From Candidatus Zemynaea palustris (GTDB taxonomy: Bacteria > Vulcanimicrobiota > Vulcanimicrobiia > Vulcanimicrobiales > Vulcanimicrobiaceae), in the NCBI GenBank assembly GCA_003134695.1, contig PLCB01000037.1:1-64000 (forward strand): a DNA stretch of 64,000 bases. The letters are read 5' to 3'. The notes beneath the pieces are model-generated. The model was given only the letters and a program-made list of their open reading frames with translations. It was not told the DNA's origin and made no database searches. The position numbers and the translations under genes are program-made. This document shows, in pieces, positions 13,075 to 64,000 of this stretch. Position 1 is the stretch's first letter. Every line of letters begins with the position of its first letter.

Positions 13075-14472
13075 GGCACGCGACTCGCTCCTGGTGCTGC
13101 TTACGATGAACCAAAGTAGCAAACAGCCGGCGAGTGAAAGGGCCCGCAGGATGCCCCACAACGGGTCGAGGCGGTCGATGCCGCTTGCGTGTTGCTCGGC
13201 GGCCCACGTCGTGGTGACCGAGGCTGCGTGGTCGACGTGGAAGTTGGCCGGGAGCGCGTCCGGCCAAATCGGTAGCGGATGTGCGGCGGCGATCCCTCCG
13301 AGATAGATAACGGCCGCGACGGCGAGCACGCCGATGACGAGCGTCGACCACGCTTGTCTGCGCGCGAGAATCAGGATCGCGAGCGCGGCAGCGGCGGTCA
13401 ACGCAATCGTTTGAGGGAGGCCGTCGGGACGTTGCGCGAGGCCGAGCCAGTCGACCGCGACGAGCAGCGTCCCGAGGATCGCAACGAGCCTAAGCACGCC
13501 GTCGCTTCGCCGAAGCGCAAAGACCGCCGGAAAGAACAGCAGCGTGAAATCATGCTCGTGCGCGAACGGCCACGCGAGCGGCAGTGCGGCGGACGCGATT
13601 GCGAAGCGTTTGAGCAGCTCGTGCCCGTGGACCGTCAGCTGAACGAAGAGCCACAGCAGAACGAGTGCCGTCAAACCGAGGCCGATACCGGCGGCGAGCT
13701 GCGGCGACGCCCCGAACGCACGTGCCACCGCGGCGGGCGTCGTCTGGATCACCAGAAATTGTTCGGAGCGGGCATGCTCGCCTAGCATCGCCAGATACCG
13801 AAGCAAACCGGCGCCGCCGCCCATCGCAAAAAACGAGCCAACAAGCGCCACGAACGCCGCGAGCGCAAGCGCGATCGTCGCACGCCGATCGCCGAAGCGG
13901 GCACCGAGCGCGATGGCGATATTCGGTTGCAGTGCCGCGACCAGCGCACCGGCGGCCGCCCCGAGCGCATTCCGCGCGCGCAACGACGCAAGCGCGACGA
14001 TCGTCCCCGCGCATGCGACGACCGCGGCCTGGCCGAGTGCGAGACCGCTCGTCAGCGGACCGAAGCCCGCCGCCAGCACCAAGACGGCGAGCCGATCGAG
14101 TCCGTCGATGCGCGATCCGGCAAGCCGCAAGCTCCCGAGGGTCAAGATGAGGAAGGCAATGCCGAGGACGCCGCCCCACACGAGCGCCGCTCGCGGATAA
14201 TCGAGGCGCGCCAACTGCGCCCAAAGCGGTAATCCGAAGGGCGGCCCGACGAACGGCAAGAGCTCTTCGCGATTCGCATTGACGCCCGGGACGAGTCGTT
14301 CGGCGCGCCAGATCTGACGCGAATACGGATCGTCGCCGGCGGACCAGGCGGAACCGGCCGCCCAGTACGACTCGAAATCGCGCATCGTCGGGCCGGGCGT
14401 CGACTGCGGACGGACGACAAAGAAGCCGACGGCGACCGCGAGCAGCGCGACGGCGAGCGCCGCTATTCTAAT
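13066..14472 (-). CDS. GT87-like (DUF2029) polytopic membrane glycosyltransferase, apparent ATT start
   Basis: The product is strongly hydrophobic with about ten predicted membrane segments and an early FESYWAAGSAWSAGDDPYSR segment, the acidic periplasmic motif region of GT87/DUF2029 polyprenyl-phosphate-sugar mannosyltransferases. The first ATG in frame (14385) begins after a missing first helix: the 29 codons upstream encode an uninterrupted hydrophobic stretch (AALAVALLAVAVGFFVVRP) but contain no ATG, GTG or TTG. The ATT at 14472 overlaps the TAG stop of the M50 gene (ATTAG), consistent with coupled initiation. With it the protein is 468 residues. Family assignment is moderate; the start is inference. 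Confidence 0.6.
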   Translation of the reverse strand: MRIAALAVALLAVAVGFFVVRPQSTPGPTMRDFESYWAAGSAWSAGDDPYSRQIWRAERLVPGVNANREELLPFVGPPFGLPLWAQLARLDYPRAALVWGGVLGIAFLILTLGSLRLAGSRIDGLDRLAVLVLAAGFGPLTSGLALGQAAVVACAGTIVALASLRARNALGAAAGALVAALQPNIAIALGARFGDRRATIALALAAFVALVGSFFAMGGGAGLLRYLAMLGEHARSEQFLVIQTTPAAVARAFGASPQLAAGIGLGLTALVLLWLFVQLTVHGHELLKRFAIASAALPLAWPFAHEHDFTLLFFPAVFALRRSDGVLRLVAILGTLLVAVDWLGLAQRPDGLPQTIALTAAAALAILILARRQAWSTLVIGVLAVAAVIYLGGIAAAHPLPIWPDALPANFHVDHAASVTTTWAAEQHASGIDRLDPLWGILRALSLAGCLLLWFIVSSTRSESRASA

Positions 14473-15319
14473 GCGGAACCGTGACCTGCGATGCGAGCAT
14501 CGCCGCGAACAAGAATCCGGCGAGGGAGAAATAGGCGAGCGCGACGCCGCCGCGCTGCACCGGCGCGAGATCGTGGTAGGCCGTGTCGATCCGGCCGCGC
14601 CAGGCCGCGATCGCTTGCGGGATACTGAAGACGACGAGTATGAGCATCAGCGGATTGAACCAGCGGAACGCGACCGCCGCGACGATCATCGCTACGAGTC
14701 CGAAGATCCAGATGCGCGGCGAAATCGCGCCAACGACGCGACCGCCATCGAGCGGCAAGACCGGAAACAGGTTGAACAGATTCAAGAAGAAGCCCGTGTA
14801 GGCGATCGCGATCCAGAATTGGTCGCCGCTCATCGCGCCGTAACCGTAGCAGGCAAGCGAAGCGAGCGTTCCCGTCAGCGGCCCGGCGAGCGCGATGTAC
14901 GACTCTTCGAGCTGCGACGCAGGCCGTCCGCGCATGTTGATCATCGCGCCCATCCCCGGAATGAAATACGGCAGCGAGGCCGGGACGCCATAGAAGCGCA
15001 TGAAGGCCGCATGGCCGAGTTCGTGAATCAGAATCAGAATGACGAAGACGAAGGCGAATTTCCAACCCCAGAAGAGCGCGTAGAACCAGATCGACGCGAA
15101 GAAACCAAGCGACGCGAGTAAGATCTTTGAGCTGAACAGAAACCCGATCCACTTGAAGCTTAACAGCAGAAACCACAACGACTTGAATTTCGCGAGGATG
15201 ATGCCGAGGCCGACGGCGCCGGCACCGAAACCCTTCCAGGTATTATTCGAACCGGGTCGCTGGGGCGGAAGGTACTCGCCTTCGAAGACCTGACGGGGAG
15301 GCGGCTGGAACTGCTGCAC
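14468..15319 (-). CDS. M50-family intramembrane zinc metalloprotease
   Basis: The GTG at 15319 gives a 283-residue protein; the open frame runs further upstream but only as the complement of the divergent kinase gene, so that extension is rejected. The sequence has the zinc-binding HELGHAAF in a membrane helix (about residue 100) and the second motif NLFPVLPLDGGRVVG with the third metal ligand Asp, both diagnostic of site-2/M50 proteases. Four to five hydrophobic segments surround them. Such proteases cleave membrane-embedded substrates, for example anti-sigma factors, but no candidate substrate gene is adjacent. The GT87-like gene follows with an overlapping stop. Confidence 0.88.
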   Translation of the reverse strand: MQQFQPPPRQVFEGEYLPPQRPGSNNTWKGFGAGAVGLGIILAKFKSLWFLLLSFKWIGFLFSSKILLASLGFFASIWFYALFWGWKFAFVFVILILIHELGHAAFMRFYGVPASLPYFIPGMGAMINMRGRPASQLEESYIALAGPLTGTLASLACYGYGAMSGDQFWIAIAYTGFFLNLFNLFPVLPLDGGRVVGAISPRIWIFGLVAMIVAAVAFRWFNPLMLILVVFSIPQAIAAWRGRIDTAYHDLAPVQRGGVALAYFSLAGFLFAAMLASQVTVPH

Positions 15320-15379
15320 GATTCGGAGTGTTCGCGGTCGGCGCGCGCGCTCCTGAGATGAGCGAGAAATGAGCGAAAA

Positions 15380-16330
15380 GTGACCGCGAGCGACGCGTTG
15401 CGCATCGCCGTGCATTTCGGCGTGGAGGGCGTCGCCGCGCACGAGTTGCCGGGCGGTTGGGTCAACGACAACTGGCGCGTCGAGGCCGGCGGCGGCGCGA
15501 GCTACGTCGTCCGGCGCTACGGCCGCATGCACGTCACCCGCCGCGCCGTGTTCTTCGAACACGCCGTGATGCGCCACGCCGCCGCGCGCGTCAGCGAAGT
15601 GCACGCACCGCTCGAGGACACGGAGGGCGAGTCGATTCTTCTGGACGACGGCGCGTTCGCCGCGACGTTTCCCTTCGTCGTCGGCAGGATCGGCGAGCGT
15701 GGCGCGGCGCCGCTTGCGGCCGCGACCCTGGCGCGTTTCCATCTGGCGCTGGCTGGTTTTCGGGCGGCGCGTCCGCGCGGGGCGCGGACGGTCGGGGCGC
15801 TCGCATGGTTGCGCGAGCGATTCTTGCAACTCGCGGCGCAACCGGCCTTTGCGCAGAAGTTGCCCTGGGATGAAGTCGCCGTCGCGATCGCGGGCGCGCT
15901 GACGCGCGTCCTGCCGCAGGCGGGGCGCTTGCCGCTCGCGACGGTGCACGGCGATCCGCATCCGGACAATTTCGTCGTCGACGGCGCCCGGATCGCCGGG
16001 CTGCTCGATTTCGACTTCGCCCACGAAACCGAGCGTGCGTTCGACGTCGGATCCGCGATGGACACGTTCGCGCGCGAAAACGAAGATGCGCCGCTCGACC
16101 TCGAATCGGCCATCGACCTTGCGCGCGCGTATCATGCCGCAGCGCCGCTCAGCCAGACCGAATACGATCTGCTGCCCGATTTCATGCTTCGCCGTAACGC
16201 CTTCCTCATTTGGTACGTGGTCAGCCGTCACGGCCGGCGGGCCTTCGGCGACATCGGCAACGCCGACCGCTACGCGCGCCGGGTGCTCGAGTTGGACAAA
16301 CTCGCCCGCGCGTGGAAGTCCCCTCTATGA
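15380..16330 (+). CDS. APH/choline-kinase-fold phosphotransferase
   Basis: A 316-residue GTG-started protein with the aminoglycoside-phosphotransferase-like fold: catalytic-loop motif ATVHGDPHPDNFVV (Brenner HxDxxxxN-type) and the metal-binding LLDFDFAHETERAFD about 20 residues later. Related enzymes include homoserine kinase II (ThrB type) and spectinomycin/choline kinases; substrate cannot be assigned here. It is divergent from the M50 gene with 60 bases between starts, and the NADH dehydrogenase gene overlaps its stop (ATGA), so the two form one operon. Confidence 0.82.
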   Translation: MTASDALRIAVHFGVEGVAAHELPGGWVNDNWRVEAGGGASYVVRRYGRMHVTRRAVFFEHAVMRHAAARVSEVHAPLEDTEGESILLDDGAFAATFPFVVGRIGERGAAPLAAATLARFHLALAGFRAARPRGARTVGALAWLRERFLQLAAQPAFAQKLPWDEVAVAIAGALTRVLPQAGRLPLATVHGDPHPDNFVVDGARIAGLLDFDFAHETERAFDVGSAMDTFARENEDAPLDLESAIDLARAYHAAAPLSQTEYDLLPDFMLRRNAFLIWYVVSRHGRRAFGDIGNADRYARRVLELDKLARAWKSPL

Positions 16331-17634
16331 CGAGGATTCTGATCCTTGGCGGTGGGTTCGGCGCGATGGCGGCGACGCGGAAACTCGAGCGCCTCCTGCG
16401 TCCCGGCGAGGCCGAGATCACGGTCGTGAGCTACGAGAACTTCACGGTCTTCACGCCGATGCTGCCCGAAGTTCCGTCTGGGAATCTCGAGCCGCGCCAC
16501 GTCGTCACGCCGATTCGAGCGCAACTGCGGCGCTCGCGTTTTGTTTTAGGCCGAGTCGTCGGCGTCGATTTCGCGACGCGGATCGTCGAGGTCGACCATG
16601 CGATCGACGGCTCTCGATACCGGCTCGGCTACGATCACGTCGTGTTCGCGCTCGGCTCGGTCACGTCGACGTTCAATCTCCCCGGCGTCGCCGAGCGGTC
16701 GTATCCGCTCAAAGGCCTCGAGGACGCCGAACGGATTCGCAATCACGCGCTCGCGTGCTTCGAACTCGCCGACGTCACGGAGGACGAGGAAAAACGGAGA
16801 CGCCTGCTCACGTTTGCGATCGTCGGCGGAGGATTCACCGGCGTCGAAGCGGCCGGCGAGTTCACTGATTTCTTTCGCAGCATCGCGCGCTTCTATCGGG
16901 CCGTCGATCGGCGCGAGATCTCGCTCGTACTCGTGGAAGCCGGTCCGCAGCTCTTGCCCGATCTGCCGCCGGCGATGGGCGAGTATAGCGTGCGCGCGCT
17001 CGAACGCCGCGGCGTGCGCGTGCTGCTGAACGCGCCGGTCGCGGCCGCCGACAAAGACGGGCTCTCGCTCAAGGACGGAACCCGCGTCGAGACCTCGACG
17101 CTCATTTGGAGTGCGGGCGTGAAACCGTCGCCGCTCGTCGCATCGCTCCCGATCGGGACTGGGCGCGGCGGCGCGATCGTGGTGCAGCGCGATCTCTCGG
17201 TCGCGGACTATCCCGGCGTGTGGGCGATCGGCGATTGCGCGCAGGTCCCGTCGCCCGCGGGAGGGTGGTATCCGCCGACGGCACAGCATGCGATTCGCGA
17301 AGGCCCGGTCGTCGCGCGCAACATCGTAAGTGCGTTGCGCGGTCTGCCGATGCAGCCGTTTCGCTACGAAGCGCTCGGGATGATGGCCTCGCTCGGCGGC
17401 CGGCGCGGCGTCGCCGGCTTGCGCGGCGGTTACGTGCTGACGGGATTCCTCGCGTGGCTTCTCTGGCGAACGTATTATCTGCTGCGCTTACCGGGACTCG
17501 ACCGGCAGGTGCGCGTCGCGCTTGACTGGACGCTCGGCCTGATTTTCCCGCGCGACATCTCCGAGTTGCGGCTCTACACCGAAAGCGACCGCGACGCAAC
17601 CGGCGCGGACCGCCGACCCGGGGCCGGGTTGTAA
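16327..17634 (+). CDS. ndh: Type II NADH dehydrogenase (NDH-2), FAD-dependent
   Basis: The ATG at 16327 overlaps the upstream TGA (ATGA). The 435-residue protein starts with the FAD-binding dinucleotide fold RILILGGGFGAMAATRKLER, has the NADH-binding fold AIVGGGFTGVEAAGEF near residue 165, and the C-terminal FAD contact WAIGDCAQVPSP followed by TAQHAIREGPVVARNI. Together these mark a non-proton-pumping NADH:quinone oxidoreductase attached to the inner face of the membrane; the C-terminal GFLAWLLWRTYYLLRL segment is the usual membrane-associating part. Assignment within the family (versus sulfide:quinone oxidoreductase) rests on the lack of the SQR catalytic cysteines. Confidence 0.88.
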   Translation: MTRILILGGGFGAMAATRKLERLLRPGEAEITVVSYENFTVFTPMLPEVPSGNLEPRHVVTPIRAQLRRSRFVLGRVVGVDFATRIVEVDHAIDGSRYRLGYDHVVFALGSVTSTFNLPGVAERSYPLKGLEDAERIRNHALACFELADVTEDEEKRRRLLTFAIVGGGFTGVEAAGEFTDFFRSIARFYRAVDRREISLVLVEAGPQLLPDLPPAMGEYSVRALERRGVRVLLNAPVAAADKDGLSLKDGTRVETSTLIWSAGVKPSPLVASLPIGTGRGGAIVVQRDLSVADYPGVWAIGDCAQVPSPAGGWYPPTAQHAIREGPVVARNIVSALRGLPMQPFRYEALGMMASLGGRRGVAGLRGGYVLTGFLAWLLWRTYYLLRLPGLDRQVRVALDWTLGLIFPRDISELRLYTESDRDATGADRRPGAGL

Positions 17635-17664
17635 CAGAATCGGGACGGGCGGCGTTATCTCCCC

Positions 17665-18090
17665 ATGAAGCGTACGTCCCTCCCCATGGCCGCTGCGGTC
17701 GTCGCTTCACTGCTGCTCGCGTCGCTGCAAGCCGCGCCGGCTGCACCCGCGCCGACGTCGCCGCCGCCGCAGATCGTGCGGCTGAATGCGACCTGGTTTT
17801 CGACCGACGGTCCGCCAGAGGCATACCGCCTCGGAATCTACGCGACCGGGGTCGACCGCAATGCCGTGATCGTCTTCGACCGCGACACGCTCGTGTCGAT
17901 CGAGAACGGCGCGACGATCGACAGCGGCGATGACAACATCACGCTGCCCGCGGATCAACGATTTCTGCGAATCACGGTGCCGGCGAAGTTTCGGACTCAG
18001 GCGGGGAAAGTCTCCGTCCAGGTCAGCCAAGACGGGAAGCTCTCGGCGCCGTTCTTTATCCACCTCGAGACGGCGTTTGCCGTACCTTGA
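17665..18090 (+). CDS. Secreted protein of unknown function, small beta domain
   Basis: A 141-residue protein with a clear signal peptide (KRTSLPMAAAVVASLLLASL, cleavage after AAPA) and one ~110-residue domain rich in beta-forming segments (IVRLNATWFS, NAVIVFDRDTLVSIEN, RFLRITVPAKFRTQAGKVSV). The last part resembles IPT/TIG-like immunoglobulin folds (VQVSQDGKLSAPFFIHLE), but I cannot name a family. It lies 30 bases after ndh on the same strand and may be cotranscribed. Function not assigned. Confidence 0.6.
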   Translation: MKRTSLPMAAAVVASLLLASLQAAPAAPAPTSPPPQIVRLNATWFSTDGPPEAYRLGIYATGVDRNAVIVFDRDTLVSIENGATIDSGDDNITLPADQRFLRITVPAKFRTQAGKVSVQVSQDGKLSAPFFIHLETAFAVP

Positions 18091-18107
18091 GGGCCGCCAC
18101 GATAAGA

Positions 18108-18125
18108 ACGCATCGGTCGATGCGT
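18108..18125. terminator. Stem-loop between convergent genes, possible bidirectional terminator
   Basis: Perfect 7-bp inverted repeat ACGCATC / GATGCGT with a GGTC loop, lying between the convergent 17665-18090 and pheA genes. Neither side has a strong T run, so intrinsic termination is uncertain. Confidence 0.4.
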
Positions 18126-18151
18126 CCTCGAAGAACTCGCAGCCTTAGCGC

Positions 18152-19777: not shown

Positions 19778-20190
19778 TTCGGTGCTTCGAGTCGCTGCAG
19801 CCCGGCGCGCGCCGGCTCGTAGCCCGGGTCGACCTTGAGCGCGCGCTGGTAATACGGCCGCGCTTGGTCAAACTTTCCGGCGGCGGCGTAAAGGTCGCCG
19901 AGACCGACCAGCGCGTCGCGGTCGCGCGGGTTGCGCGCGAGCCGCGTCTTAAGTTCGGTCAAGAGCCGCTGGATCGGCGCGGGCGGTGCGGCGGCGTTGG
20001 ACACGGCGGCGCTGCCGCCGCCGACGCCGTTCCCTCCCGTTACGCCGCTCTGCGCGCTGGGCAGGACCGCGCCCGAGCCGAGCCCCTTCTTCAGAAACGG
20101 GAAAACTACGGCGCCGACGACGAGCGCGGCGACGAGCATGATCGGAAGGTAGATACGCGGAGGAAGCCCGCGCGACGGTATCCGCTGCAC
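19774..20190 (-). CDS. Membrane-anchored TPR protein
   Basis: The GTG at 20190 gives 138 residues: a basic N-terminus, one membrane helix (IYLPIMLVAALVVGAVVFPF), a Gly/Ser/Ala-rich linker and a C-terminal pair of TPR-like helices (DRDALVGLGDLYAAAGKFDQ, ARPYYQRALKVDPGYEPARA). No clear ribosome site supports this start; an ATG at 20139 would remove the basic leader. It is probably an inner-membrane protein presenting a short TPR scaffold to the periplasm. The M55 gene overlaps its stop codon. Confidence 0.65.
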   Translation of the reverse strand: MQRIPSRGLPPRIYLPIMLVAALVVGAVVFPFLKKGLGSGAVLPSAQSGVTGGNGVGGGSAAVSNAAAPPAPIQRLLTELKTRLARNPRDRDALVGLGDLYAAAGKFDQARPYYQRALKVDPGYEPARAGLQRLEAPK

Positions 20191-20208
20191 CGGCAGGAAC
20201 GTTCTCGC

Positions 20209-21240: not shown

Positions 21241-22059
21241 TTAGAACGCGAAGAGGTGGCGTCCGACCAGCGCCGCCGCGGCCAAAAGAACCGAATACGC
21301 GATTATCAGCGTGAGCCGCGACGACGAGATGCGGCGCGCGATGCGGGGGCCGAGTTGTCCGCCGACGAGTCCGCCGGCGGCGAGCGGGAGCGCGTAGGGC
21401 CAATCGATGTTGCCTTCGAGCCAGTGCGCCGCGACGCCGACGGGCGTCGTGAGGAGCATCGCGACCATCGAGGTCGCGGTGACGACGTGCGGCGGCATTC
21501 CCAAGAGCGAGATGAAGAAGATCACGAAGATGATCCCGCCGCCTATTCCGAAAAAACTGGAGATGAAGCCGAGGCCGACCCCGCACAGGAGCGCGATCGG
21601 GACGCTCCAGCGATAACGAAAGACGTGACCTTGGCGGTCCTCGAGGACGCGCTCGTCCTCGACGGGCAACGCGATGCGCGGCGGCGACTCGCCCTTCGTG
21701 CGCCGCACGACGTCCGCGAAAAAGAGCACGAGTATTCCTGCGTAAAGGAAGTCGAAGTAGCGCGCGCTGACGTGACGCACGACGAGCGCCCCGAGGATGC
21801 TCGACGGGATGCCGGTGGAGGCGACGATCAGCGCGAGCTTGATGTCGGCGCGACGGTCACGAATGTAGGTGAGCGAACCGCTGACGCTGTTCGCGAAGGC
21901 GATGACCAGCGAAACGCCCGCGGTTAGGGGCGGCGGAAACCCAAATGCCAGTCGCAGCACCGGGATCGTGACGAAGGCTCCGCTCAAACCGACGATCGTT
22001 CCGAGTATTCCGGAGACGACGCCGATCGCGAGCAGGAGCGCGATCAGCTGGAGAGTCAG
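21241..22059 (-). CDS. TauE/SafE-family membrane transporter, apparent CTG start
   Basis: An eight-helix permease of the sulfite/sulfonate exporter superfamily: duplicated units beginning GVVSGILGTIVGLSGAFVTIP and GVGLGFISSFFGIGGGIIFV match the two half-repeats, and the middle loop is charged (RRTKGESPPR). The first TTG in frame (21987) would cut off half of the first repeat. The 24 codons before it encode the missing helix (LTLQLIALLLAIGVVSG), and a CTG at 22059 overlaps the TGA stop of efp (CTGA). With CTG the protein has 272 residues. Transported substrate unknown. The start is inference; the family is clear. Confidence 0.8.
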   Translation of the reverse strand: MTLQLIALLLAIGVVSGILGTIVGLSGAFVTIPVLRLAFGFPPPLTAGVSLVIAFANSVSGSLTYIRDRRADIKLALIVASTGIPSSILGALVVRHVSARYFDFLYAGILVLFFADVVRRTKGESPPRIALPVEDERVLEDRQGHVFRYRWSVPIALLCGVGLGFISSFFGIGGGIIFVIFFISLLGMPPHVVTATSMVAMLLTTPVGVAAHWLEGNIDWPYALPLAAGGLVGGQLGPRIARRISSSRLTLIIAYSVLLAAAALVGRHLFAF

Positions 22060-30564: not shown

Positions 30565-31479
30565 TTAGGAGACGAGCCTTCTCACGCCTTGCGGCAAGCT
30601 GACGGTTGCGTCGATCACTTTTACCGCGGAGCCGCCGACCTCGACGGTTTTCAATTTGCCGTCTTTGATGCGTAGGATGCCGTGCAACCGACTACGGCGC
30701 TTGATCTTCGTGCCTTGTTCGCTCGTGAAGCGGGTGCCGTCGCGGTTTTCGATCAGGCCGTAGCGTGCGAGATACGCCCCGAGCGGGCCGGTCGCGCTTC
30801 CGGTGGCCGGATCTTCGCGAATCCCCGACATCGGCGCGAACATCCGCGCGTACGCGCCCTCGTTTGTCGGGGCGAAGAAGAAGACGCCGTTCGCACCAAA
30901 ACTCGGCGCGACGCGTTCGAGCGCGCGTGCGTCGAGGTCGGCGCGATCGACGGTCGCCTTGTCGCGGACCGCGACGAACAGGAACGGATTGCCGGCGCTG
31001 ACGACCTGCGCCGGATAATTTTCGCCGAGAAGATCTCGCGCGCTCAGTCCCAGCGCTTCGGCGCAACCCGCGGCGTCATAGGTCGCCTCGAAACGAATCG
31101 GCGGCGTCGTGAGCCAAGCGAGAAACGGGTCGCGCCGCTCGAGTCTGATCGGAATCGGGCCGACATTTTCCTCGAGGACGAATTCGGTTGAGCCATCGCG
31201 GATACGCCCAAGCGCCGTTAGCACATACGCGGTGCCGATCGTCGGGTGGCCGGCGAACGCCATCTCCGCCAGCGGCGTGAAGATGCGCACTTTCGCGGCG
31301 TGCTTCGGATCGGCGGCGGAGAACACGAACGACGACTCCGAGAGGTTCAATTCGCGCGCGAGCGTCTGCATCTCGTCGTCGCTCAGGCCATCCGCGTCGG
31401 GGAAAACCGCGAGCGGATTCCCTTCAAAGGCCGTCGCCGTGAAAACGTCGACGACCTGATAACGACACGTGCGCGTCAG
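30565..31479 (-). CDS. PhzF-family isomerase/epimerase-like protein, apparent CTG start
   Basis: A 304-residue member of the diaminopimelate-epimerase-fold PhzF family: RYQVVDVFTATAFEGNPLAV at the N-terminus, LNLSESSFVF with the catalytic-type Glu, MAFAGHPTIGTAYVL and EDPATGSATGPLGAYLA. The family norm is to start just before the first strand, yet that reading frame has no ATG, GTG or TTG there; the next canonical codon would remove conserved strands, and in-frame codons further upstream lie inside the STAS gene in a non-conserved frame. The CTG at 31479 overlaps the STAS stop (CTGA). Substrate unknown. Confidence 0.85.
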   Translation of the reverse strand: MTRTCRYQVVDVFTATAFEGNPLAVFPDADGLSDDEMQTLARELNLSESSFVFSAADPKHAAKVRIFTPLAEMAFAGHPTIGTAYVLTALGRIRDGSTEFVLEENVGPIPIRLERRDPFLAWLTTPPIRFEATYDAAGCAEALGLSARDLLGENYPAQVVSAGNPFLFVAVRDKATVDRADLDARALERVAPSFGANGVFFFAPTNEGAYARMFAPMSGIREDPATGSATGPLGAYLARYGLIENRDGTRFTSEQGTKIKRRSRLHGILRIKDGKLKTVEVGGSAVKVIDATVSLPQGVRRLVS

Positions 31480-40756: not shown

Positions 40757-40789
40757 AGTTCACTCTCTTCCACGAACGGAATCTCTCGC

Positions 40790-42054
40790 ATGTCTCGAAG
40801 CTTTCGTCTGCGGCGCGCAAGGTCGCGCCGCAGACGGATCGTCGTTCTCTCCAGCGCTTTTATCGCGGCTGCCCTCATCGGGGCTCTCGCGTGGATCGCC
40901 TTCGTGCCCGCCGGGCGGCAATTCATCGGGGCGGTCGCGACGCGCGTCGCGCTCGGCGATCGGCCGATCAACGTCCTCTTCATCGCCAACAACGCGCGCG
41001 GCGTCAAAGCGAACGATCCTTTGGGTCTGGGTTCGGCCGCCGGTCAGGCCGACGCGATCGTCCTGGTGCACTTCGATCCCGGGGAGCACGCGATCTATGC
41101 GATCACGATCCCCCGCGACACGTTGGTTGCCCAACCCGGATGGCACAACCCCATTCCGAAAATCAAGACGCTGTTCTTCATGGGCGATCAGGAGAAGCCG
41201 CCGCGGGGCCCGCAGCTCTTGTCGAAGGCCGTGGCAGACCTCACCGGCCTGCCCGTCGACGGGTACGTCGTGGCAAATTTCGCGTCGTTCAAAGCTGCCG
41301 TCGATCTGGTCGGCGGGTTGACGATCGACGTGAGGAAGCGGATCTACGATCCGCACGATGCCCACGCGGACTTCAAGCCAGGCGTCCAGCAGATGAACGG
41401 CGCGCAGGTCCTGGCCTTCGTCCGAGTTCGTCAGAATCACGCCGGAAACGACTATCGCATCGACGACTTTCAGCGGATGCAGGCCGAAGTGCAGGTTCTT
41501 GGGTTATTGCGCGATCGCGTGCTCGATCCGAAGAACGCCGCGACGCTCATGCCGCATTTCGTTTCGAGTCTGAAGGGCGACATCGCGACGAACTTCTCTC
41601 AAGACCAACTCGTCGTCTCGGCATCGCGTCGAGCGGCGCGCCGGTCTACCAAGTTCCGCTGGGAACGATCGCCGACGCGATGTCGCTGAGTTCGGCGAAG
41701 ATCCCCGGGGTGAACGCCGATGGAAGAATTTACGGCGCCACCTACGACGTGTTGGACCCGGACAAGATTCAAGCGCGCCTGGCGAAGTTCGGTTCGCACT
41801 CGTCCAGCACCGGCCTGGAGGCGTCGTCGCCGGCGACCATCCCGGTGAAGTTGTACGGGAGCACGCACATGGTGCTCCACTTGCAGCACCTGGGATTTCG
41901 ATTGGTCCGCCGCGCCGGCGGACCCACCGGAGCGAATAGCGTCACGTATCCCTCGAAACATCCGAGTTGGGGCTGGCAAATCGCCCGCGCGCTCGGGACA
42001 GGGAGCGTCGACGTCGAGCCGGGCGACGTCGACGCGGTCATCGCTCGCGAGTGA
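40790..42054 (+). pseudogene. LytR-CpsA-Psr family protein, frameshifted near 41617
   Basis: Frame 1 (40790-41617) encodes a basic N-terminus, one membrane helix (IVVLSSAFIAAALIGALAWI) and most of an LCP catalytic domain (AIYAITIPRDTLVAQPG, GGLTIDVRKRIYD, VLAFVRVRQNHAGNDYRIDD). After NFSQDQLVV the frame turns into Arg-rich nonsense and stops at 41689, while the -1 frame continues with LGIASSGAPVYQVPLGTIAD and a LytR_C-type C-terminal domain (IPVKLYGSTHMVLHLQHLGF) to 42054. Reading both gives ~421 residues, a normal family length. LCP enzymes attach glycopolymers to peptidoglycan. One missing base (GTCGTC[C]TCGGC) explains it; sequencing error and true mutation cannot be separated here. Confidence 0.8.
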
Positions 42055-53612: not shown

Positions 53613-54247
53613 GCGAGCCACGAACCGTCGTCCTAATCGAAGATCATAGCCTGACGCGGGCCGGCCTGCGGACCGCGCTCGAGGCGAGTGGTGAACTGCG
53701 CATCGTGGCGGAGGCCGAAGACGGACCGAGCGGTCTGGACGCCATCGTCGCTCGAAAGCCCGACGTCGCCGTCGTCGACATCGGCTTGCCGGGGATCGAC
53801 GGCATCGAGGTGACGCGGCGCGCACGCCTCGTGGCGCCCGGGACCCGCGTCGTGATCCTGACGGTCCACGATCTCGAGACCGAAGTGCTGGCGGCACTTT
53901 CCGCCGGCGCCGACGCCTATTGTTTGAAGACTTCGCCGCCGGAGCGAATCGTCGCGGCGGTGATGACCGCGGCCGACGGCGGGGCGTATTTCGATCCCGG
54001 GATCGCGCGCGTCGTCATGCGCAATCTTGGCGCGCCGAACGCGCCGGCCTCTTCGTCACCGTTGACGCCGCGCGAGACGGAGATCTTGCGCATGATCGCC
54101 GAGGGCCACGGCAACACCGAAATCGCTAAGACGCTCTATCTCGGACTCGGTACGGTGAAGGGGCACATTCGCGACATCCTCGAGAAACTGGCCGCCGTCG
54201 ACCGAACGCAAGCAGCAGTCGTCGCGCTCAGGCGAGGTTTGATCTAG
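53609..54247 (+). CDS. NarL/FixJ-family response regulator
   Basis: A 212-residue regulator: receiver domain with ED at 11-12, phospho-Asp57 in VAVVDIGLPGIDG and the LKTSPPERI Lys, then a LuxR-type helix-turn-helix (LTPRETEILRMIAEGHGNTE, YLGLGTVKGHIRDILEKL). It overlaps the kinase stop (ATGA). A KdpE partner would be OmpR-type, so if this pair controls kdp it is a replacement. Convergent with the GNAT gene, overlapping by 4 bases. Confidence 0.94.
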   Translation: MSEPRTVVLIEDHSLTRAGLRTALEASGELRIVAEAEDGPSGLDAIVARKPDVAVVDIGLPGIDGIEVTRRARLVAPGTRVVILTVHDLETEVLAALSAGADAYCLKTSPPERIVAAVMTAADGGAYFDPGIARVVMRNLGAPNAPASSSPLTPRETEILRMIAEGHGNTEIAKTLYLGLGTVKGHIRDILEKLAAVDRTQAAVVALRRGLI

Positions 54248-54726
54248 AGGAAGCGGTGCATCACGAGGGCGTCGACCTCGCCGAGTGTCGCATGGCGAAA
54301 CGCCTTTGGTAGGCGGCCGACGGTCTCGAAGCCATGGCGTTGCCAGAGGCGTACGGCCGCTTCGTTCGTGCCGACGACGAAATTGAATTGCATCGCACGA
54401 AAACCCGCCGCACGCGCCGCGACGAGCGAATGCTCGCACATCGCTCCGGCGATGCCGCGGCCGCGAAAGGCGGGATCGACGAGGTAGCCGGCGTTGCCGA
54501 CATGATCGCCGAGACCCATTTGGTTCGGGTGGAGCATGTACGTTCCGGCGATCTGCCCCTCGACGACCGCCACGAAAACGTGCGATCTCGGCGGAAACCA
54601 ATACGCGCGAAATTCGTCGTCGCCGGCGCCCGGTGCCGGCGTCAACGTGTCGCCGCCGGCAACTGCGAGTTCGAAGATGGCGCGTATCCGAGGAACGTCC
54701 TCGGCAGCCGCCGAGCGAATCTCGAT
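54244..54726 (-). CDS. GNAT-family N-acetyltransferase, apparent ATC start
   Basis: A GNAT fold with acetyl-CoA loop VDPAFRGRGIAGAMCEHSLV and C-terminal NFVVGTNEAAVRLWQRHGFE. The first canonical codon in frame (TTG 54645) drops the family's first strand and helix. The 27 codons before it encode exactly that element (EIRSAAAEDVPRIRAIFELA, then VAGGDTLTP). An ATC at 54726 begins this reading and shares an A with the upstream TAA stop (TAATC). With ATC the protein is 160 residues, usual for the family. Substrate unknown. Confidence 0.82.
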   Translation of the reverse strand: MEIRSAAAEDVPRIRAIFELAVAGGDTLTPAPGAGDDEFRAYWFPPRSHVFVAVVEGQIAGTYMLHPNQMGLGDHVGNAGYLVDPAFRGRGIAGAMCEHSLVAARAAGFRAMQFNFVVGTNEAAVRLWQRHGFETVGRLPKAFRHATLGEVDALVMHRFL

Positions 54727-56156: not shown

Positions 56157-56234
<78 letters not shown>

Positions 56235-58132: not shown

Positions 58133-58150
58133 TCTAGCGTAGCGTTCCCA

Positions 58151-59830
58151 TCAGTAGCTGCGTGCCTCCGGCTTCCACTGCGTGATCGTTACCGGAGCGT
58201 ACGAGAGTTCGGGTTCCTTGCCGGTTCGATAGGTAATCAAGATGTGTTTGAGCCACTCCGCGTCGTTGCGCTCCGGATAGTCCGTGCGCGATTGAGCGCC
58301 GCGGCTTTCCTTTCGTTCGAGCGCGCTGCGCACGATCGCATCGGCGCAGTCGAGCATGAAACCGACCTCGAGCGCGAAGGTGAGCGCCTGATTGAAGATG
58401 CGGCTCTTGTCGCCCACCGCGATCTTTTCGTAGCGCGCCTTCAGCCCGGAGAGTCGCTTCAGTGCTTCCGTCAAACCGGCTTCGTTGCGATAGACGCCGC
58501 AGTGCTTGTCCATCATCGTCGCGAGTTCGAGGCGTAAGCGCGCGTGTGTCTCGCCGGTGTACGGCCGCGCCAGCAACTCTTGCATGCGCGCTTGTTCGGC
58601 GTGCAAGACGTTCTCGCCGCCGCGCGACCCCGCGACGCCCTTGACGTAGGCCGCTGAAGCCTTCCCCGAGCGGCGGCCGAAGACGATCGTGTCGAGCAAG
58701 GAGTTTGCGCCGAGCCGGTTTCCGCCGTGGACGCTGACGCAAGCTACCTCGCCGGCGGCGTAGAGGCCCTGAAGGCGTGTGGCGCCGGTCGCGTCGGTCT
58801 TTACCCCGCCCATCTGATAGTGCATCCCGGGACGCACCGGAATGGGATCCTTGATCATGTCGAGGCCGACATAGTCGAGCGCCATCTCGTGAATCTGCGG
58901 CAATTTCTTCAGGATCACATCCGCGCCGAGGTGGCGACAGTCGAGCAGCACGTTCCCGTCGATCCCTCGGCCCTCGGCGATCTCGGTCACTTCGGAGCGC
59001 GAGCAGACGTCGCGCGCGGCGAGCTCCATCTTGTTGGGCGCGTAGCGCTTCATGAAGCGCTCGCCCTCGGAATTGAGGAGGTACGCGCCTTCACCGCGCG
59101 CCGCCTCCGACATCAAGAACCCGCTGCCGGCGAGCGTCGTCGGATGGTACTGCACCATCTCCATGTCCATCAGCGGCGCGCCGGCGCGATAGGCCAGCGC
59201 GTAGCCGTCGCCGGTGCATATGAGCGCGTTGGTGCTGGGCTCGAAGACGCGGCCCAGTCCGCCCGCCGCATCGATCACCGCTTTCGCGCGCACGAGATGC
59301 AATTCGCCCGTGATCATCTCGAGCGCGACGAGTCCGCGGCACGCGCCGTTCTCGACGTAGAGCGTCGTCGCGAACCACTCTTCGTACACTTTGACGCCGG
59401 CTTTGAGAATTTGGTCGTACAGCGTGACCAGCAGCGCCTGCCCGGTAATGTCGCCGACGAAATACGTTCGCGCTTGCGAAGCGCCCCCGAAGGCGCGCGT
59501 TCCGAGTTTGCCGTCCTCGTTGCGGTAGAAGATGACGCCCATGTGCTCGAACTCGACGATATCGGCTGGGGCTTCGCGGCACATGACTTCAACCGCGTCC
59601 TGATCCGCAAGATAGTCGCTGCCTTTGATCGTGTCGAACGCGTGCGACTCCCACGAGTCGCCCTCGCCGAGTGCGGCGTTGATGCCGCCCTGCGCGGCGC
59701 TCGAATGGCTGCGAATGGGATGGACTTTCGTGACGATGGCGACGTCGGCACCCTCACGCGCCGCTTCGAGGGCGGCGCGCATTCCGGCCAGACCCGCTCC
59801 CAGGACGAGCACGTCGTGATCGATCGTCAC
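58151..59830 (-). CDS. sdhA: Succinate dehydrogenase/fumarate reductase flavoprotein subunit
   Basis: A 559-residue flavoprotein: FAD-binding VLVLGAGLAGMRAALEAA-like start, IRSHSSAAQGGINAALGEGD with the His expected to bind FAD covalently, QYHPTTLAGSGFLMSEAARG with active-site His-Pro-Thr, and HGGNRLGANSLLDTIVFGRR. It oxidises succinate (or reduces fumarate) and passes electrons to SdhB. First gene of the operon; no cytochrome b subunit is encoded anywhere in the window. Confidence 0.95.
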   Translation of the reverse strand: MTIDHDVLVLGAGLAGMRAALEAAREGADVAIVTKVHPIRSHSSAAQGGINAALGEGDSWESHAFDTIKGSDYLADQDAVEVMCREAPADIVEFEHMGVIFYRNEDGKLGTRAFGGASQARTYFVGDITGQALLVTLYDQILKAGVKVYEEWFATTLYVENGACRGLVALEMITGELHLVRAKAVIDAAGGLGRVFEPSTNALICTGDGYALAYRAGAPLMDMEMVQYHPTTLAGSGFLMSEAARGEGAYLLNSEGERFMKRYAPNKMELAARDVCSRSEVTEIAEGRGIDGNVLLDCRHLGADVILKKLPQIHEMALDYVGLDMIKDPIPVRPGMHYQMGGVKTDATGATRLQGLYAAGEVACVSVHGGNRLGANSLLDTIVFGRRSGKASAAYVKGVAGSRGGENVLHAEQARMQELLARPYTGETHARLRLELATMMDKHCGVYRNEAGLTEALKRLSGLKARYEKIAVGDKSRIFNQALTFALEVGFMLDCADAIVRSALERKESRGAQSRTDYPERNDAEWLKHILITYRTGKEPELSYAPVTITQWKPEARSY

Positions 59831-59889
59831 TTATTTTTTCGCTCCTTGCACCCGTTCCAAACGCGGCGCCGCGGCACTGTCAGCCTCCG

Positions 59890-59945
59890 TTACAGGCACT
59901 AGTGTAAATAAAAGACTCTCGCGAGTCCTGCGGAAATGTCGCAGG
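59890..59945 (+). promoter_or_regulatory. Dyad and two stem-loops in the sdhA/Clp-N divergent spacer
   Basis: TTACA...TGTAA (59890-59907) is an operator-like dyad. GACTC TCGC GAGTC (59914-59927) and CCTGCG...CGCAGG (59927-59945) form consecutive stem-loops ending 6 bases before the Clp-N GTG, where they could hide the ribosome site. Function is inference. Confidence 0.4.
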
Positions 59946-59951
59946 GCAGAC

Positions 59952-60353
59952 GTGTTTACCCGTTTCAGCCCGGCAGCCAATCGCATTCTTCGGCTCGCCG
60001 AACAAGAGTGCCGGAACCTCAACCACTACTATGTCGGCGCCGAGCATTTGCTCCTGGCGCTGTGCGACGAGCCGGACCAGGCGACGGCGGCGTACCTGGC
60101 CGAGCATAGCCTGAACAAAGACCGGCTGCGCGCGGCGCTGCGGCGTTCGCTCGGGACGGGCGAGGACCGGATGTGGGATGGGATCTTGGTCACGCCGCGG
60201 GTCCGGGCGATCGTCGAGCGCGCCGAAAACGCCGCCGGAGCCGGGAATGCAGTCGAGCCGGTCGACCTCTTGCGGGCGATCGTCGCCGAGCGTCTGAGCA
60301 CGGCCGCCGAGATTCTGGCGCAATCCGAAGGGAACGTCCGCCGGGCCGGGTAG
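59952..60353 (+). CDS. Stand-alone Clp N-terminal domain protein
   Basis: A 133-residue GTG-started protein consisting only of the double Clp-N repeat: FTRFSPAANRILRLAEQECR, NLNHYYVGAEHLLLALCDEP and VTPRVRAIVERAENAAGAGN, PVDLLRAIVAERLSTAAEIL. No AAA+ module follows. It resembles ClpC N-domains and may act as an adaptor or decoy that binds substrates or adaptors of a Clp ATPase. Leader contains inverted repeats. Confidence 0.88.
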   Translation: MFTRFSPAANRILRLAEQECRNLNHYYVGAEHLLLALCDEPDQATAAYLAEHSLNKDRLRAALRRSLGTGEDRMWDGILVTPRVRAIVERAENAAGAGNAVEPVDLLRAIVAERLSTAAEILAQSEGNVRRAG

Positions 60354-60379
60354 CACCCCCGGCTAGCGGAGGACCTTTC

Positions 60380-60997
60380 CTGGAGCATCTGGCGCAGTTC
60401 TTCCTCAACCTGGTCGACAGATTCGGCTACCCCGGGCTTTTTGTCGTGATGGTGCTCGGGAATCTCGGTTTCCCGGTCGGCACCGAGATCGTCGTCCCGG
60501 CCGCCGGCGCGCTGGCCGCGACCGGGCATCTCTCGAGTTGGTGGCTAGCGGCGACGATTGCGACGGTAGGCGAACTCGTCGGCGGCATGATCCTGTACAC
60601 GATCGGCTACTACGGCGGGCGGCCGTTCGTCGCGCGTTGGGGGAAGTATCTCAAACTCGACGAGCACAAGCTCGATCGGTTCCACGAATTTTACGAGCGG
60701 TACGGAAACGTCGTCGTCCTGATCTGCCGTTTCGTTCCGTTCGTCCGCGGCGTCTCGGCGCTGCCGGCCGGCGTCTCGCGCATGCCGAAGCGATTCTTCT
60801 TGCTCTACACGGCGCTTGGCTCGGCGGCGTTCTGCTTCGGACTCGCCTGGCTCGGCAACGCCTTCGCCCGCCATATCGACGAGATCACGCCGCAGATCCA
60901 CCGCTACTCGACCGCCTTCCTGATCGTATCGGGCGCGGCGATCTGCGTCTTTGTCGCATACCGGCTTCTCAGGCGGCCGCGCGGCGAAGCCGCGTGA
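60380..60997 (+). CDS. DedA-family membrane protein, CTG start with strong ribosome site
   Basis: A 205-residue DedA/VTT protein: RFGYPGLFVVMVLGNLGFPV, GELVGGMILYTIGYYGGRPF, RFHEFYERYGNVVVLICRFV and PFVRGVSALPAGVSRMPKRF are the conserved segments. In this frame the CTG at 60380 is preceded by GGAGG at 7 bases and gives EHLAQFFLNLVDRFG, the usual DedA N-terminus; the first ATG/GTG (GTG in VVMVLG) would delete the first conserved block. DedA proteins act in membrane lipid (undecaprenyl-phosphate or phospholipid) flipping. Confidence 0.9.
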   Translation: MEHLAQFFLNLVDRFGYPGLFVVMVLGNLGFPVGTEIVVPAAGALAATGHLSSWWLAATIATVGELVGGMILYTIGYYGGRPFVARWGKYLKLDEHKLDRFHEFYERYGNVVVLICRFVPFVRGVSALPAGVSRMPKRFFLLYTALGSAAFCFGLAWLGNAFARHIDEITPQIHRYSTAFLIVSGAAICVFVAYRLLRRPRGEAA

Positions 60998-61023
60998 GCC
61001 GAAAATGGGTTACAATAGATGCC

Positions 61024-61596
61024 ATGAAGTCGCTCGCCGTGCTGCTTGTTTTGGTGCTTGGTCTGGGGGCTCAGGCGGCCGCGCAGGTGACCCTGCCGCC
61101 GTCGCTGCCCCTGCCGCCCCCGTTGCCTCCGCCGCCGCCGGTCAATGTGACGGCGCAGGCGCTCCACGACGCTTACACCGCGGTCGTGCGCTCGAAGTCT
61201 TTGCAAGCGAACTTCTTGTATGCCGAGGCGCTGGCGCGCTATCGCGCCGGCGATCGCACGAGCGCAACCTACGATGCCGCGCTCGCAGCTGGGATGGCGA
61301 ACGCCGTGCTCGGACGCACCTACATCGCGCCGATCGGTGCGGCGCCGCCGCCGGACTTTCTCCTCCAGGCGAAAACCATTCCGTTGCCGGCCGTCCTTCC
61401 GACGGAAGTCTTGCGCGCTCGCAATGAAATCGAACGCGTGCAGCAATTGACCGGCGATCCCCTCAGCGCCGCGACGGCGCGCTATCGTGCCGCGCTCGAT
61501 CGCTACTTCGCCGGCGACGTCGCCGGCGCGAAGTCCGAAGCAGACGCCGCCTACGCGTCGGCAGTGGCGGCAGCGAAAAACTCGCGCCAGCACTGA
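61024..61596 (+). CDS. Secreted proline-rich protein of unknown function
   Basis: A 190-residue protein with signal peptide (KSLAVLLVLVLGLGAQAAAQ), a Pro-rich stretch (LPPSLPLPPPLPPPPPVNVT) and an Ala-rich helical domain with two segments of similar pattern (FLYAEALARYRAGDRTSATY, ARYRAALDRYFAGDVAGAKS). It looks like a TPR-like helical periplasmic protein. It starts 26 bases after the DedA gene and 2 bases before uvrC. Function unknown; the proline run is a likely EF-P target. Confidence 0.6.
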   Translation: MKSLAVLLVLVLGLGAQAAAQVTLPPSLPLPPPLPPPPPVNVTAQALHDAYTAVVRSKSLQANFLYAEALARYRAGDRTSATYDAALAAGMANAVLGRTYIAPIGAAPPPDFLLQAKTIPLPAVLPTEVLRARNEIERVQQLTGDPLSAATARYRAALDRYFAGDVAGAKSEADAAYASAVAAAKNSRQH

Positions 61597-61598
61597 GG

Positions 61599-63632
61599 AT
61601 GCCGCCGACGGGCGCGCCCGAGCGCACGCGCCGCAACCTGGAACAGACGCTCGGCCAAGTGCCGGACGCCCCCGGCGTCTATCTGATGCTGGGCGAGAAC
61701 GAGCGAATTCTGTACATCGGAAAAGCGATCTCGCTGCGCAATCGGGTCCGTTCGTACTTTCAAGACTCAGCGTTCCTCGCGCCGCGTACGGAGAAGATGG
61801 TCGAACGCGTCGTCGACGTGCGCTGGATCGTCGTGAACAACGAGATCGAGTCGCTCATCCTCGAGGCGAACTTGATCAAACGGCACCAGCCGCCGTTCAA
61901 CGTCCGCCTGCGCGACGACAAGCGCTATCCGTACCTCAAGGTATCGAACGAGCCGTTTCCGCGCGTGATGTTCACGCGGGTCGTGCGCGACGACGGCGCC
62001 CGTTACTTCGGCCCGTACACCAATGCTCACGGCTTGCGCGAACTGATCAACCTCGTGCGAGTCGTCTTTCCGCTGCGCACCTGTCGCGAACCGATCGACG
62101 GAAAACGGAAGCGGCCGTGCCTGCAGTATCACATCAAACGCTGCCTCGCGCCGTGCGTCGGCTATCAGAGCGAACCGGAATACGACGAACTCGTCGACGA
62201 GGTCGTGCTGTTTCTCGAAGGCCGGCAAGACCGGCTGCTCGAGCGGCTCAATGCGGAGATGACGGACGCGGCCCGTCGCTTGAACTACGAGGCCGCCGCG
62301 CATTTGCGCGATCGCATCGTGGCGGTGCGCCGCGTCACCGAAGGCCAGAAGGTCGTCTGGCGTTCGCGCATCGACATGGATTTGATCGCCGCGGCGAAAA
62401 CGCAAGGTCAAGCCTGCATGCAAGTCTTCATGGTACGCGGCGGGAAGTTGATCGGTCAGGAGCATTTCATGCTCGACGGTGTCGCCGATCAACCAGATGA
62501 CGTCCTCTTCGGCGAGTTCTTCAAGCAGTTCTACACGGCGCGCGCCGCGCAAACCAACATCGGCGTGACCGACGGTTTTTCGCCGCTGGCGCTGCGCGAG
62601 GCGCGCGATAACGAGGTGCCGATCGCGCTCAAGGCACGCGCGCGCAAGCCGGTGTCGGCCGCGACGATCCCCAAGGAAATCTTGGTGGAGACGTTGCCGG
62701 CGGAACTCGGTGTGATCGAGGCGTGGCTCGGCGAACTCAAGGACCAGCGCGTCCGCGTCCTGCTCGCGCAACGCGGGCCGCGCGCCGAGTACATGCGGCT
62801 CGTACGAGAAAACGCCGAGCAGAACCTCAAGGCGTTCCTCGCGCACCAAGAGCTGCAGGAGACGATTTCGGCGCGCTCGCTGACCGAGCTCGCGGCGGCG
62901 CTCGACCTTCCCGAGCCGCCGCATCGCATCGAGTGCTACGACATCTCCAACATCCAAGGCACCAACCCCGTCGCGTCGATGGTCGTCTTCGTGGAGGGCC
63001 GCGCAAAGAAGAGCGACTACCGGCGCTTCAAGATTCGATACGACCAGGGCGCCAACGACTTCGCGATGATGCAGGAGACGCTGCGCCGGCGCTTGCGTTA
63101 CTTGCGCGCCGACACCAACGCGCCGGGCGAAGAAGATCCGGCGAGCATTCGCGAGGAAGAAACGCTGGAAGCGCAACTGCGGCGGAAGGAGAAGTTTCAC
63201 CATCGTCCCGATCTCTTACTCATCGACGGCGGCAAAGGCCAGCTCAACGCGGTCGTCGAGGTGCTCGAAGAACTCGAGCTGTGGGGCATCCCCGTCGCCG
63301 GGCTTGCCAAGGAACACGAGTGGCTGTACGTTCCAGGTCAGTCCGAGCCGATCGTCCTGCCGCCAGGCTCGCCGGGATTGCACCTCGTCATGCGCGTGCG
63401 CGACGAAGCGCACCGCTTCGCCGTCGAATTTCATCGCAAGCGGCGCGGAAAAGCGATGACGCGCTCGGCGCTCGACGCGCTTTCGGGCGTCGGTCCGGTG
63501 CGGCGCAAGCGCTTGCTGAACGCGTTCGGTTCGCTGGCCGCGATCAAGCGCGCCGGCGTCGACGAGATCGCCGCGGTGAAGGGGATGACGGCTGCGCTCG
63601 CCGCGGCGCTGAAGGTTGCCCTGGAGGCGTAG
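61599..63632 (+). CDS. uvrC: Excinuclease ABC subunit C
   Basis: A 677-residue nucleotide-excision-repair nuclease. GIY-YIG domain (APGVYLMLGENERILYIGKA), Cys-containing LQYHIKRCLAPCVG, UVR domain (ARRLNYEAAAHLRDRIVAVR), RNase-H-like 5' incision domain (RIECYDISNIQGTNPVASMV, LLIDGGKGQLNAVVEVLEEL) and C-terminal helix-hairpin-helix repeats (LDALSGVGPVRRKRLLNAFG). It cuts on both sides of lesions with UvrB. Confidence 0.97.
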   Translation: MPPTGAPERTRRNLEQTLGQVPDAPGVYLMLGENERILYIGKAISLRNRVRSYFQDSAFLAPRTEKMVERVVDVRWIVVNNEIESLILEANLIKRHQPPFNVRLRDDKRYPYLKVSNEPFPRVMFTRVVRDDGARYFGPYTNAHGLRELINLVRVVFPLRTCREPIDGKRKRPCLQYHIKRCLAPCVGYQSEPEYDELVDEVVLFLEGRQDRLLERLNAEMTDAARRLNYEAAAHLRDRIVAVRRVTEGQKVVWRSRIDMDLIAAAKTQGQACMQVFMVRGGKLIGQEHFMLDGVADQPDDVLFGEFFKQFYTARAAQTNIGVTDGFSPLALREARDNEVPIALKARARKPVSAATIPKEILVETLPAELGVIEAWLGELKDQRVRVLLAQRGPRAEYMRLVRENAEQNLKAFLAHQELQETISARSLTELAAALDLPEPPHRIECYDISNIQGTNPVASMVVFVEGRAKKSDYRRFKIRYDQGANDFAMMQETLRRRLRYLRADTNAPGEEDPASIREEETLEAQLRRKEKFHHRPDLLLIDGGKGQLNAVVEVLEELELWGIPVAGLAKEHEWLYVPGQSEPIVLPPGSPGLHLVMRVRDEAHRFAVEFHRKRRGKAMTRSALDALSGVGPVRRKRLLNAFGSLAAIKRAGVDEIAAVKGMTAALAAALKVALEA

Positions 63633-63714
63633 GTAACTGACTTCCTGGGGCCGGTCACGGGAGTTCTCGGCAGCGCGGCTTCTTCAGAGGCTCCCTAGAT
63701 CGCGCCACGTCTGA

Positions 63715-63729
63715 AAAAGGAGGCCAGCC
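63715..63729 (+). promoter_or_regulatory. Perfect Shine-Dalgarno deciding an ATT start
   Basis: AAAAAGGAGG followed by CCAGCC places the ATT at 63730 exactly 6 bases after a full anti-SD complement. No ATG, GTG or TTG lies within normal spacing. Confidence 0.7.
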
Positions 63730-64000
63730 ATTCACTTTCTGATACGGCTCGTCGTCAATATTGCGGCGATGTTCTTCGTCGTTCTCGTGTTCCCGGGTCC
63801 CGCGCACGTGCACGTACACGATCCCGTCTGGACGCCGATCATCGCGGCGATCGTGCTCGGGATCATCAACGCGATCTTACGGCCGATCCTCATCATCTTG
63901 ACGTTGCCCGTCGAGATACTGACGCTCGGACTCTTCACGCTGGTGATCAATGCGATCACGTTCTGGGTCGTGACGCTGATCCGCCCGATCGGGCTGACGG
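63730..64000 (+). CDS. Phage-holin-family-IV-like membrane protein, ATT start, cut by the window edge
   Basis: The frame runs open to the window end and encodes HFLIRLVVNIAAMFFVVLVF, a His-rich loop (GPAHVHVHDPVW), then TPIIAAIVLGIINAILRPIL, LTLPVEILTLGLFTLVINAI and TFWVVTLIRPIGLT. The four-helix pattern and the LRP-x-x-x-x-x-TLP-x-x-x-x-TLGLF core match PF04020 (mycobacterial 4TMS phage holin family), which is widespread in chromosomes and not evidence for a prophage. ATT start is backed by a perfect ribosome site; ATG 63769 has none. The C-terminus is missing. Confidence 0.75.
   Translation, partial: MHFLIRLVVNIAAMFFVVLVFPGPAHVHVHDPVWTPIIAAIVLGIINAILRPILIILTLPVEILTLGLFTLVINAITFWVVTLIRPIGLT

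What the first reader, a model, noticed from the sequence alone, without database searches (positions are those of the whole stretch)
14385..63732. Window-wide use of near-cognate start codons (ATT, CTG, ATC) in six genes
Six recognisable genes (GT87-like, TauE/SafE, PhzF, GNAT, DedA, holin-family-IV) lack ATG, GTG or TTG where their family N-terminus requires a start. In each, the missing element is encoded in frame from an ATT, CTG or ATC. Two have near-ideal Shine-Dalgarno sequences; four overlap the stop of the gene upstream. About one gene in ten here would be affected, far above the norm. IF3 normally rejects exactly these codons, so relaxed IF3 discrimination or coupled re-initiation in this lineage is an attractive explanation.
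Basis: partly seen in the sequence, partly recalled or inferred. Interest (0 to 1): 0.85.

Follow-up and report, generated by a model that had tools for sequence, protein, structure and literature searches.

The report
Near-cognate start codons in Vulcanimicrobiota genes
In this little-studied bacterial lineage, some conserved genes (at least about 2 in 100 in the sampled genome) appear to begin at start codons that bacteria normally reject (CTG, ATT, ATC, ATA), at exactly the positions where related species use ordinary ones, so standard gene finders will miss or truncate them.

Summary
All six genes exist. Each lacks ATG/GTG/TTG where its family starts and has an in-frame near-cognate codon there: GT87 ATT 14472, TauE CTG 22059, PhzF CTG 31479, GNAT ATC 54726, DedA CTG 60380, holin-IV ATT 63730. 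Protein conservation begins abruptly at that codon in all six. The best cases recur in independent assemblies: the holin is ATT in the congener (MAG UBA5184) and ATC in another genus, each behind AAGGAGG; DedA is CTG in five genomes and TauE CTG in about nine of 30, where relatives use ATG/GTG/TTG. Sequencing error is therefore unlikely for these. GNAT is the weakest case.

Prevalence was overstated. In about 1 Mb of this genome 17 of 856 scored genes need such a start (2.0%, a lower bound): 6 of 57 in the window, 11 of 799 elsewhere. A GC-matched Cupriavidus control gave 0 genuine cases in 363. Published annotation puts CUG at 0.024% of bacterial starts.

Relaxed IF3 is not supported. IF3 and the initiator-tRNA anticodon arm look normal, and infC itself starts at ATA in 30 of 30 family loci, as expected if IF3 still discriminates. 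Strong SDs and stop overlaps are not significantly commoner than at canonical starts. No protein N-terminus has been measured.

The parts
13066..14472 (-). GT87-like membrane protein; near-cognate start ATT 14472-14470 overlapping the TAG (14470-14468) of the upstream site-2-protease-like gene; first canonical codon ATG 14385 would remove TM1
   Evidence: Pfam PF09594; congener G098 has ATG at the same column; conservation starts here. ATA 14466 is an alternative.
21241..22059 (-). TauE/SafE transporter; start CTG 22059-22057 (CTGA overlap with the efp stop TGA 22058-22056); next canonical codon is TTG 21987
   Evidence: Pfam PF01925; CTGA conserved in G027; CTG in G089 and G094 and others where congeners have GTG/ATG
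30565..31479 (-). PhzF-family isomerase; start CTG 31479-31477 (CTGA overlap with the STAS-gene stop TGA 31478-31476)
   Evidence: Pfam PF02567 and TIGR00654; relatives start within about 3 codons, G027 also CTG
54244..54726 (-). GNAT acetyltransferase; start ATC 54726-54724 (TAATC, 1-nt overlap with the TrkA-gene stop TAA 54728-54726); ATC 54735 is an alternative
   Evidence: Pfam PF00583; only 3 orthologues: TTG and ACG at this column, no canonical in G027. Weakest case.
60380..60997 (+). DedA/UptA-like membrane protein; start CTG 60380-60382
   Evidence: Pfam VTT; NF052604 position 1 = this CTG; CTG in G000, G098, G027, G029 and G086, ATG/GTG/TTG at the same codon in most others
60368..60372 (+). 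GGAGG Shine-Dalgarno element 7 nt upstream of the DedA CTG
   Evidence: sequence; similar SDs before CTG in G098, G029, G027 and G086
63730..64000 (+). Phage_holin_4_2 family membrane protein (runs past the window end); start ATT 63730-63732
   Evidence: Pfam PF04020; ATT in congener G098, ATC one codon earlier in G004, ATG/GTG in the others
63717..63723 (+). AAGGAGG Shine-Dalgarno element 6 nt upstream of the holin ATT; in-frame TGA at 63712 excludes any upstream start
   Evidence: sequence; conserved in G098 and G004

Best explanation
These are genuine near-cognate translation starts (first-position CTG; third-position ATT/ATC/ATA). They arose by substitution of ordinary start codons at fixed positions and are most likely decoded as fMet by a normal initiator tRNA, in a Vulcanimicrobiota lineage that tolerates such starts in at least about 2% of genes. 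In several genes a strong SD (DedA, holin) or a ribosome finishing the upstream gene (TauE, PhzF, GNAT, GT87) probably keeps the ribosome at the codon. IF3 discrimination looks intact, so expression from these genes is expected to be low and IF3-sensitive. Shown: position, conservation, frequency against a control. Inferred: initiation with fMet, low expression, the role of SD or coupling.
For: The codon aligns with ATG/GTG/TTG of orthologues and is shared by independent assemblies. Conservation begins at the codon in all six genes. NCBIfam position 1 falls on the DedA CTG and, outside the window, on NrdR CTG and infC ATA. Eleven further genes elsewhere in the genome, among them murI, lspA, ksgA, photolyase, nrdR and infC. 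17/856 vs 0/363 in a GC-matched control, p = 0.005. The finished genome G087 has CTG at the fmt start where this genome has ATG. Excluding this genome, 7 of 20 loci without a canonical codon have a near-cognate exactly at the column (p = 0.0005 against codon background), not corrected for phylogeny.
Against: No N-terminal proteomics or ribosome profiling exists for this lineage as far as I found. GNAT, PhzF and GT87 have more than one possible start codon. The relatives sharing a codon are partly one clade, so independent origins are fewer than the counts suggest. The control is one replicon. The 17 include infC, which starts at a near-cognate codon in many bacteria.
Confidence: 0.82

Rival explanations
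1. Relaxed start-codon discrimination by an altered IF3 (or initiator tRNA or 30S P site) in this lineage admits near-cognate codons generally.
For: Both first-position (CTG) and third-position (ATT/ATC/ATA) near-cognates occur, across several genera. R129 is Met and R168 is Lys in IF3.
Against: IF3 is otherwise canonical; Met129 is also the Thermus state. infC keeps ATA with an SD-like motif in 30/30 loci read, which fits intact IF3 autoregulation. Initiator-tRNA arm GGGCTCATAACCC intact in 82 of 99 genomes including this one; 790 loop normal. 98% of scored genes were not shown to require such a start.
Confidence: 0.15
2. Translational coupling: near-cognate starts persist because terminating ribosomes from the upstream gene re-initiate there, not because of free initiation.
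For: Four of six overlap the upstream stop; CTGA junctions recur at efp-tauE in several genera and at uvrC (G098), fmt (G087) and glyoxalase.
Against: Stop overlap at near-cognate starts (9/23) is not significantly commoner than at canonical starts of the same families (30/110; SD-or-overlap p = 0.24). DedA, holin, nrdR, murI and lspA have no overlap.
Confidence: 0.4
3. Assembly or sequencing errors removed ordinary start codons.
For: The window does contain one probable 1-nt deletion, in the LytR-CpsA-Psr gene at about 41613.
Against: Same near-cognate codons in independent assemblies; CTG starts in a finished genome; SDs conserved in place.
Confidence: 0.04
4. The proteins start at downstream canonical codons and the conserved N-terminal segment is not translated.
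For: Downstream ATG/GTG/TTG codons exist 14-36 codons away.
Against: The skipped segment is conserved as protein, includes TM1 in the membrane proteins, and is translated from canonical codons in relatives.
Confidence: 0.06

Closest known systems
E. coli infC and pcnB (AUU starts)
   Same: Genuine near-cognate starts; infC is repressed by IF3. PMC9410913 calls infC one of only two E. coli genes, with pcnB, to start at AUU. infC in this family starts at ATA.
   Different: Two genes in E. coli; here at least 17 of 856 sampled genes, many of them CTG, in ordinary enzymes and transporters.
Deinococcus deserti non-canonical initiation codons (Baudet et al. 2010; title seen in the reference list of PMC3564903, paper not held)
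   Same: A bacterium reported to use non-canonical initiation codons, found by N-terminal proteomics (detail from own knowledge).
   Different: Different phylum, proteomic evidence; here comparative-genomic evidence across many genera.
Mycobacterial leadered AUU initiation (PMC4633059)
   Same: ATT can initiate with an SD, as in the holin gene.
   Different: CTG was not an effective start in mycobacteria; here CTG is the commonest near-cognate in the window.

Membership tests
Genuine near-cognate bacterial start codon | Codon one base from AUG at the conserved N-terminus, no AUG/GUG/UUG available there | tested here: met
   All six window genes; NCBIfam position 1 for DedA, and for NrdR and infC outside the window
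Genuine near-cognate bacterial start codon | Orthologues use a start codon at the same column | tested here: met
   holin, DedA, TauE, PhzF, GT87; GNAT only partly
Genuine near-cognate bacterial start codon | Protein N-terminus begins with (f)Met at that codon | not testable with these tools
   needs proteomics
infC-type IF3-autoregulated near-cognate start | infC starts with AUU/AUC/AUA behind an SD | tested here: met
   ATA in 30/30 family loci read (one of them a codon earlier), SD-like motif upstream
Lineage with relaxed IF3 discrimination | Lesion in IF3 C-domain, initiator-tRNA arm or 30S P site | tested here: not met
   IF3 near-canonical, tRNA arm intact, 790 loop normal; 16S 3' part not available
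Termination-coupled re-initiation | Start overlaps upstream stop, more often than at canonical starts | tested here: inconclusive
   4 of 6 overlap, but no significant excess over canonical starts

The most novel reading that the evidence does not exclude
Vulcanimicrobiota of this family have a broadened start-codon set (AUG, GUG, UUG plus CUG, AUU, AUC, AUA) as a stable trait reaching several per cent of genes, through a change in initiation fidelity outside the parts checked here (IF1, IF2, ribosomal proteins, rRNA modification).
Probability: 0.25. Interest if true: 0.75.

Novelty: new variant of a known kind. Interest (0 to 1): 0.6.

Why it matters
Published work puts CUG at 0.024% of bacterial starts and 0.86% of AUG efficiency (PMC11497404), and finds 2 AUG-to-CUG switches among 61,358 ancestral AUG starts (PMC5622118). 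Those figures rest on annotation that seldom calls such starts. A lineage with at least 2% makes the question of what keeps near-cognate starts out of bacteria testable by comparing genera that do and do not use them at the same gene. In practice, gene callers limited to ATG/GTG/TTG will truncate or miss genes such as lspA, murI, ksgA, nrdR and dedA in this phylum.

Tried and rejected
SD-anchored scan over all 64 codons: no clear near-cognate enrichment; low power, since only 44 of 210 ATG genes have an SD. NTGA junction counts: CTGA without an alternative start in 4/68 (this genome), 3/25 (G087) and 3/14 (G062), against 0/11 in the control; suggestive only. Codon-usage gene finding in G087 was unreliable (219 of 590 flagged), so no prevalence is given for it. 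The compensation hypothesis (near-cognate only with SD or overlap) was tested and not supported. The S2P-like gene at 14468 looked like a seventh case but has GTG 15319. ribD was dropped because of an upstream GTG. The reverse test, 195 pairs where this genome is canonical, gave 2-3 near-cognate orthologues (kdpC in G075, radical SAM in G062, possibly accC in G087).

Full report
What was checked. The window is contig C22:1-64000 of a 2.70 Mb, 61-contig, 96.7% complete genome. The congener in the collection, G098, has a contig of the same length and match as MAG UBA5184, titled UBP12. A second named relative is titled Candidatus Eremiobacterota, now Vulcanimicrobiota. The finding gave no per-gene coordinates, so the six genes were located by translation and Pfam. 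Their start codons were verified base by base.

None of the six has ATG/GTG/TTG at the family N-terminus. In every one, protein conservation with relatives begins abruptly at the near-cognate codon. For DedA the NCBIfam model places residue 1 exactly on the CTG. A gene finder that ignores start codons put coding onset within 2 codons of the proposed codon for TauE, DedA and holin, 3-6 codons downstream for GT87 and PhzF, and 15 codons downstream for GNAT.

Orthologues. The six genes were searched in 99 genomes of the same family, with up to 30 loci read per gene. Holin: ATT in this genome and the congener, both behind AAGGAGG-CCAGCC; ATC behind AAAGGAGG in another genus; ATG or GTG elsewhere. 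DedA: CTG in five genomes (G000, G098, G027, G029, G086), ATG/GTG/TTG at the same codon in most others; the G098 copy also has a GTG four codons later. TauE: CTG in about nine of 30 loci, often overlapping the stop of efp, while congeners use GTG or ATG. PhzF: CTG here and in G027, ATG in the congener near the same place. GT87: ATT here, ATG in the congener. GNAT has only three orthologues and is the weakest case. Shared near-cognate codons in independent assemblies make sequencing error unlikely for the first three. The finished genome G087 has CTG at the fmt start where this genome has ATG.

How common. In 1.03 Mb of this genome, 98 of 856 scored genes had no canonical codon near the coding onset. 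The flagged genes outside the window were run through Pfam. Nine have a complete N-terminal domain and no ATG/GTG/TTG between the in-frame stop (or 60 codons upstream) and the domain: murI, a class-V aminotransferase, a photolyase, lspA, a second GNAT, a glyoxalase, an MFS transporter, an IclR regulator and ksgA. Adding nrdR and infC, whose NCBIfam position 1 falls on CTG and ATA, and the six window genes gives 17 of 856, or 2.0%. This is a lower bound: only about 42% of genes would be detectable by this flag. The same procedure on 500 kb of the Cupriavidus metallidurans megaplasmid (GC 64%) gave 27 flagged of 363 genes and no genuine case, only an integrase fragment. The difference is significant with the window (p = 0.005) and weaker without it (11/799 vs 0/363, p = 0.02). 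Seven flagged control genes were not run through Pfam.

Mechanism. The lineage's IF3 is a normal two-domain protein; the 30S-binding arginines of its C-domain align with solved IF3s, except Met129 (also Met in the Thermus protein) and Lys168 (residue roles from own knowledge). infC itself starts at ATA in 30 of 30 family loci read (one of them a codon earlier) behind SD-like motifs. That is the arrangement expected if IF3 still represses near-cognate initiation, including its own. The initiator-tRNA anticodon arm is intact in 82 of 99 genomes and in this one. The 790 loop is normal; the 3' part of the 16S, with the anti-SD, is missing from the assembly. Relaxed IF3 is therefore not supported, though a change in other factors is not excluded. 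Strong SDs (DedA, holin) and stop overlaps (TauE, PhzF, GNAT, GT87) are frequent, but not significantly more so than at canonical starts of the same families, so compensation or coupling remains plausible rather than shown.

Against what is known. Near-cognate starts are known in single genes (infC and pcnB in E. coli, PMC9410913), in mycobacterial reporters (ATT but not CTG, PMC4633059) and in Deinococcus deserti (title only, via PMC3564903). Annotated CUG starts are 0.024% of bacterial starts (PMC11497404), and AUG-to-CUG switches are very rare (PMC5622118). I found no paper on start codons in this phylum. What appears new is the frequency and the family-wide, position-by-position exchange between canonical and near-cognate codons. 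No protein N-terminus has been measured, so initiation at these codons remains an inference from conservation.

Noticed in passing
window 40757-42054 (+): The LytR-CpsA-Psr gene is split by a single-base deletion at about 41613 relative to the congener G098: a pseudogene or an assembly indel.
   Followed up: yes
L001 (G000:C28, minus strand, ATA at L001:2001) and L263-L292: infC starts at ATA in 30 of 30 family loci read (one of them a codon earlier), with an SD-like motif upstream: a conserved AUA counterpart of E. coli's AUU infC start.
   Followed up: yes
window 22056-22059 and loci L132-L161: The efp-tauE junction is a hot spot: CTG start in about nine of 30 loci from several genera.
   Followed up: partly
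G000 sampled stretches: Only 44 of 210 ATG-start genes have a recognisable Shine-Dalgarno sequence, suggesting much leaderless or SD-independent initiation.
   Followed up: no
window 56157-56234 (+): tRNA-Pro(cgg), the only tRNA found in the window.
   Followed up: no
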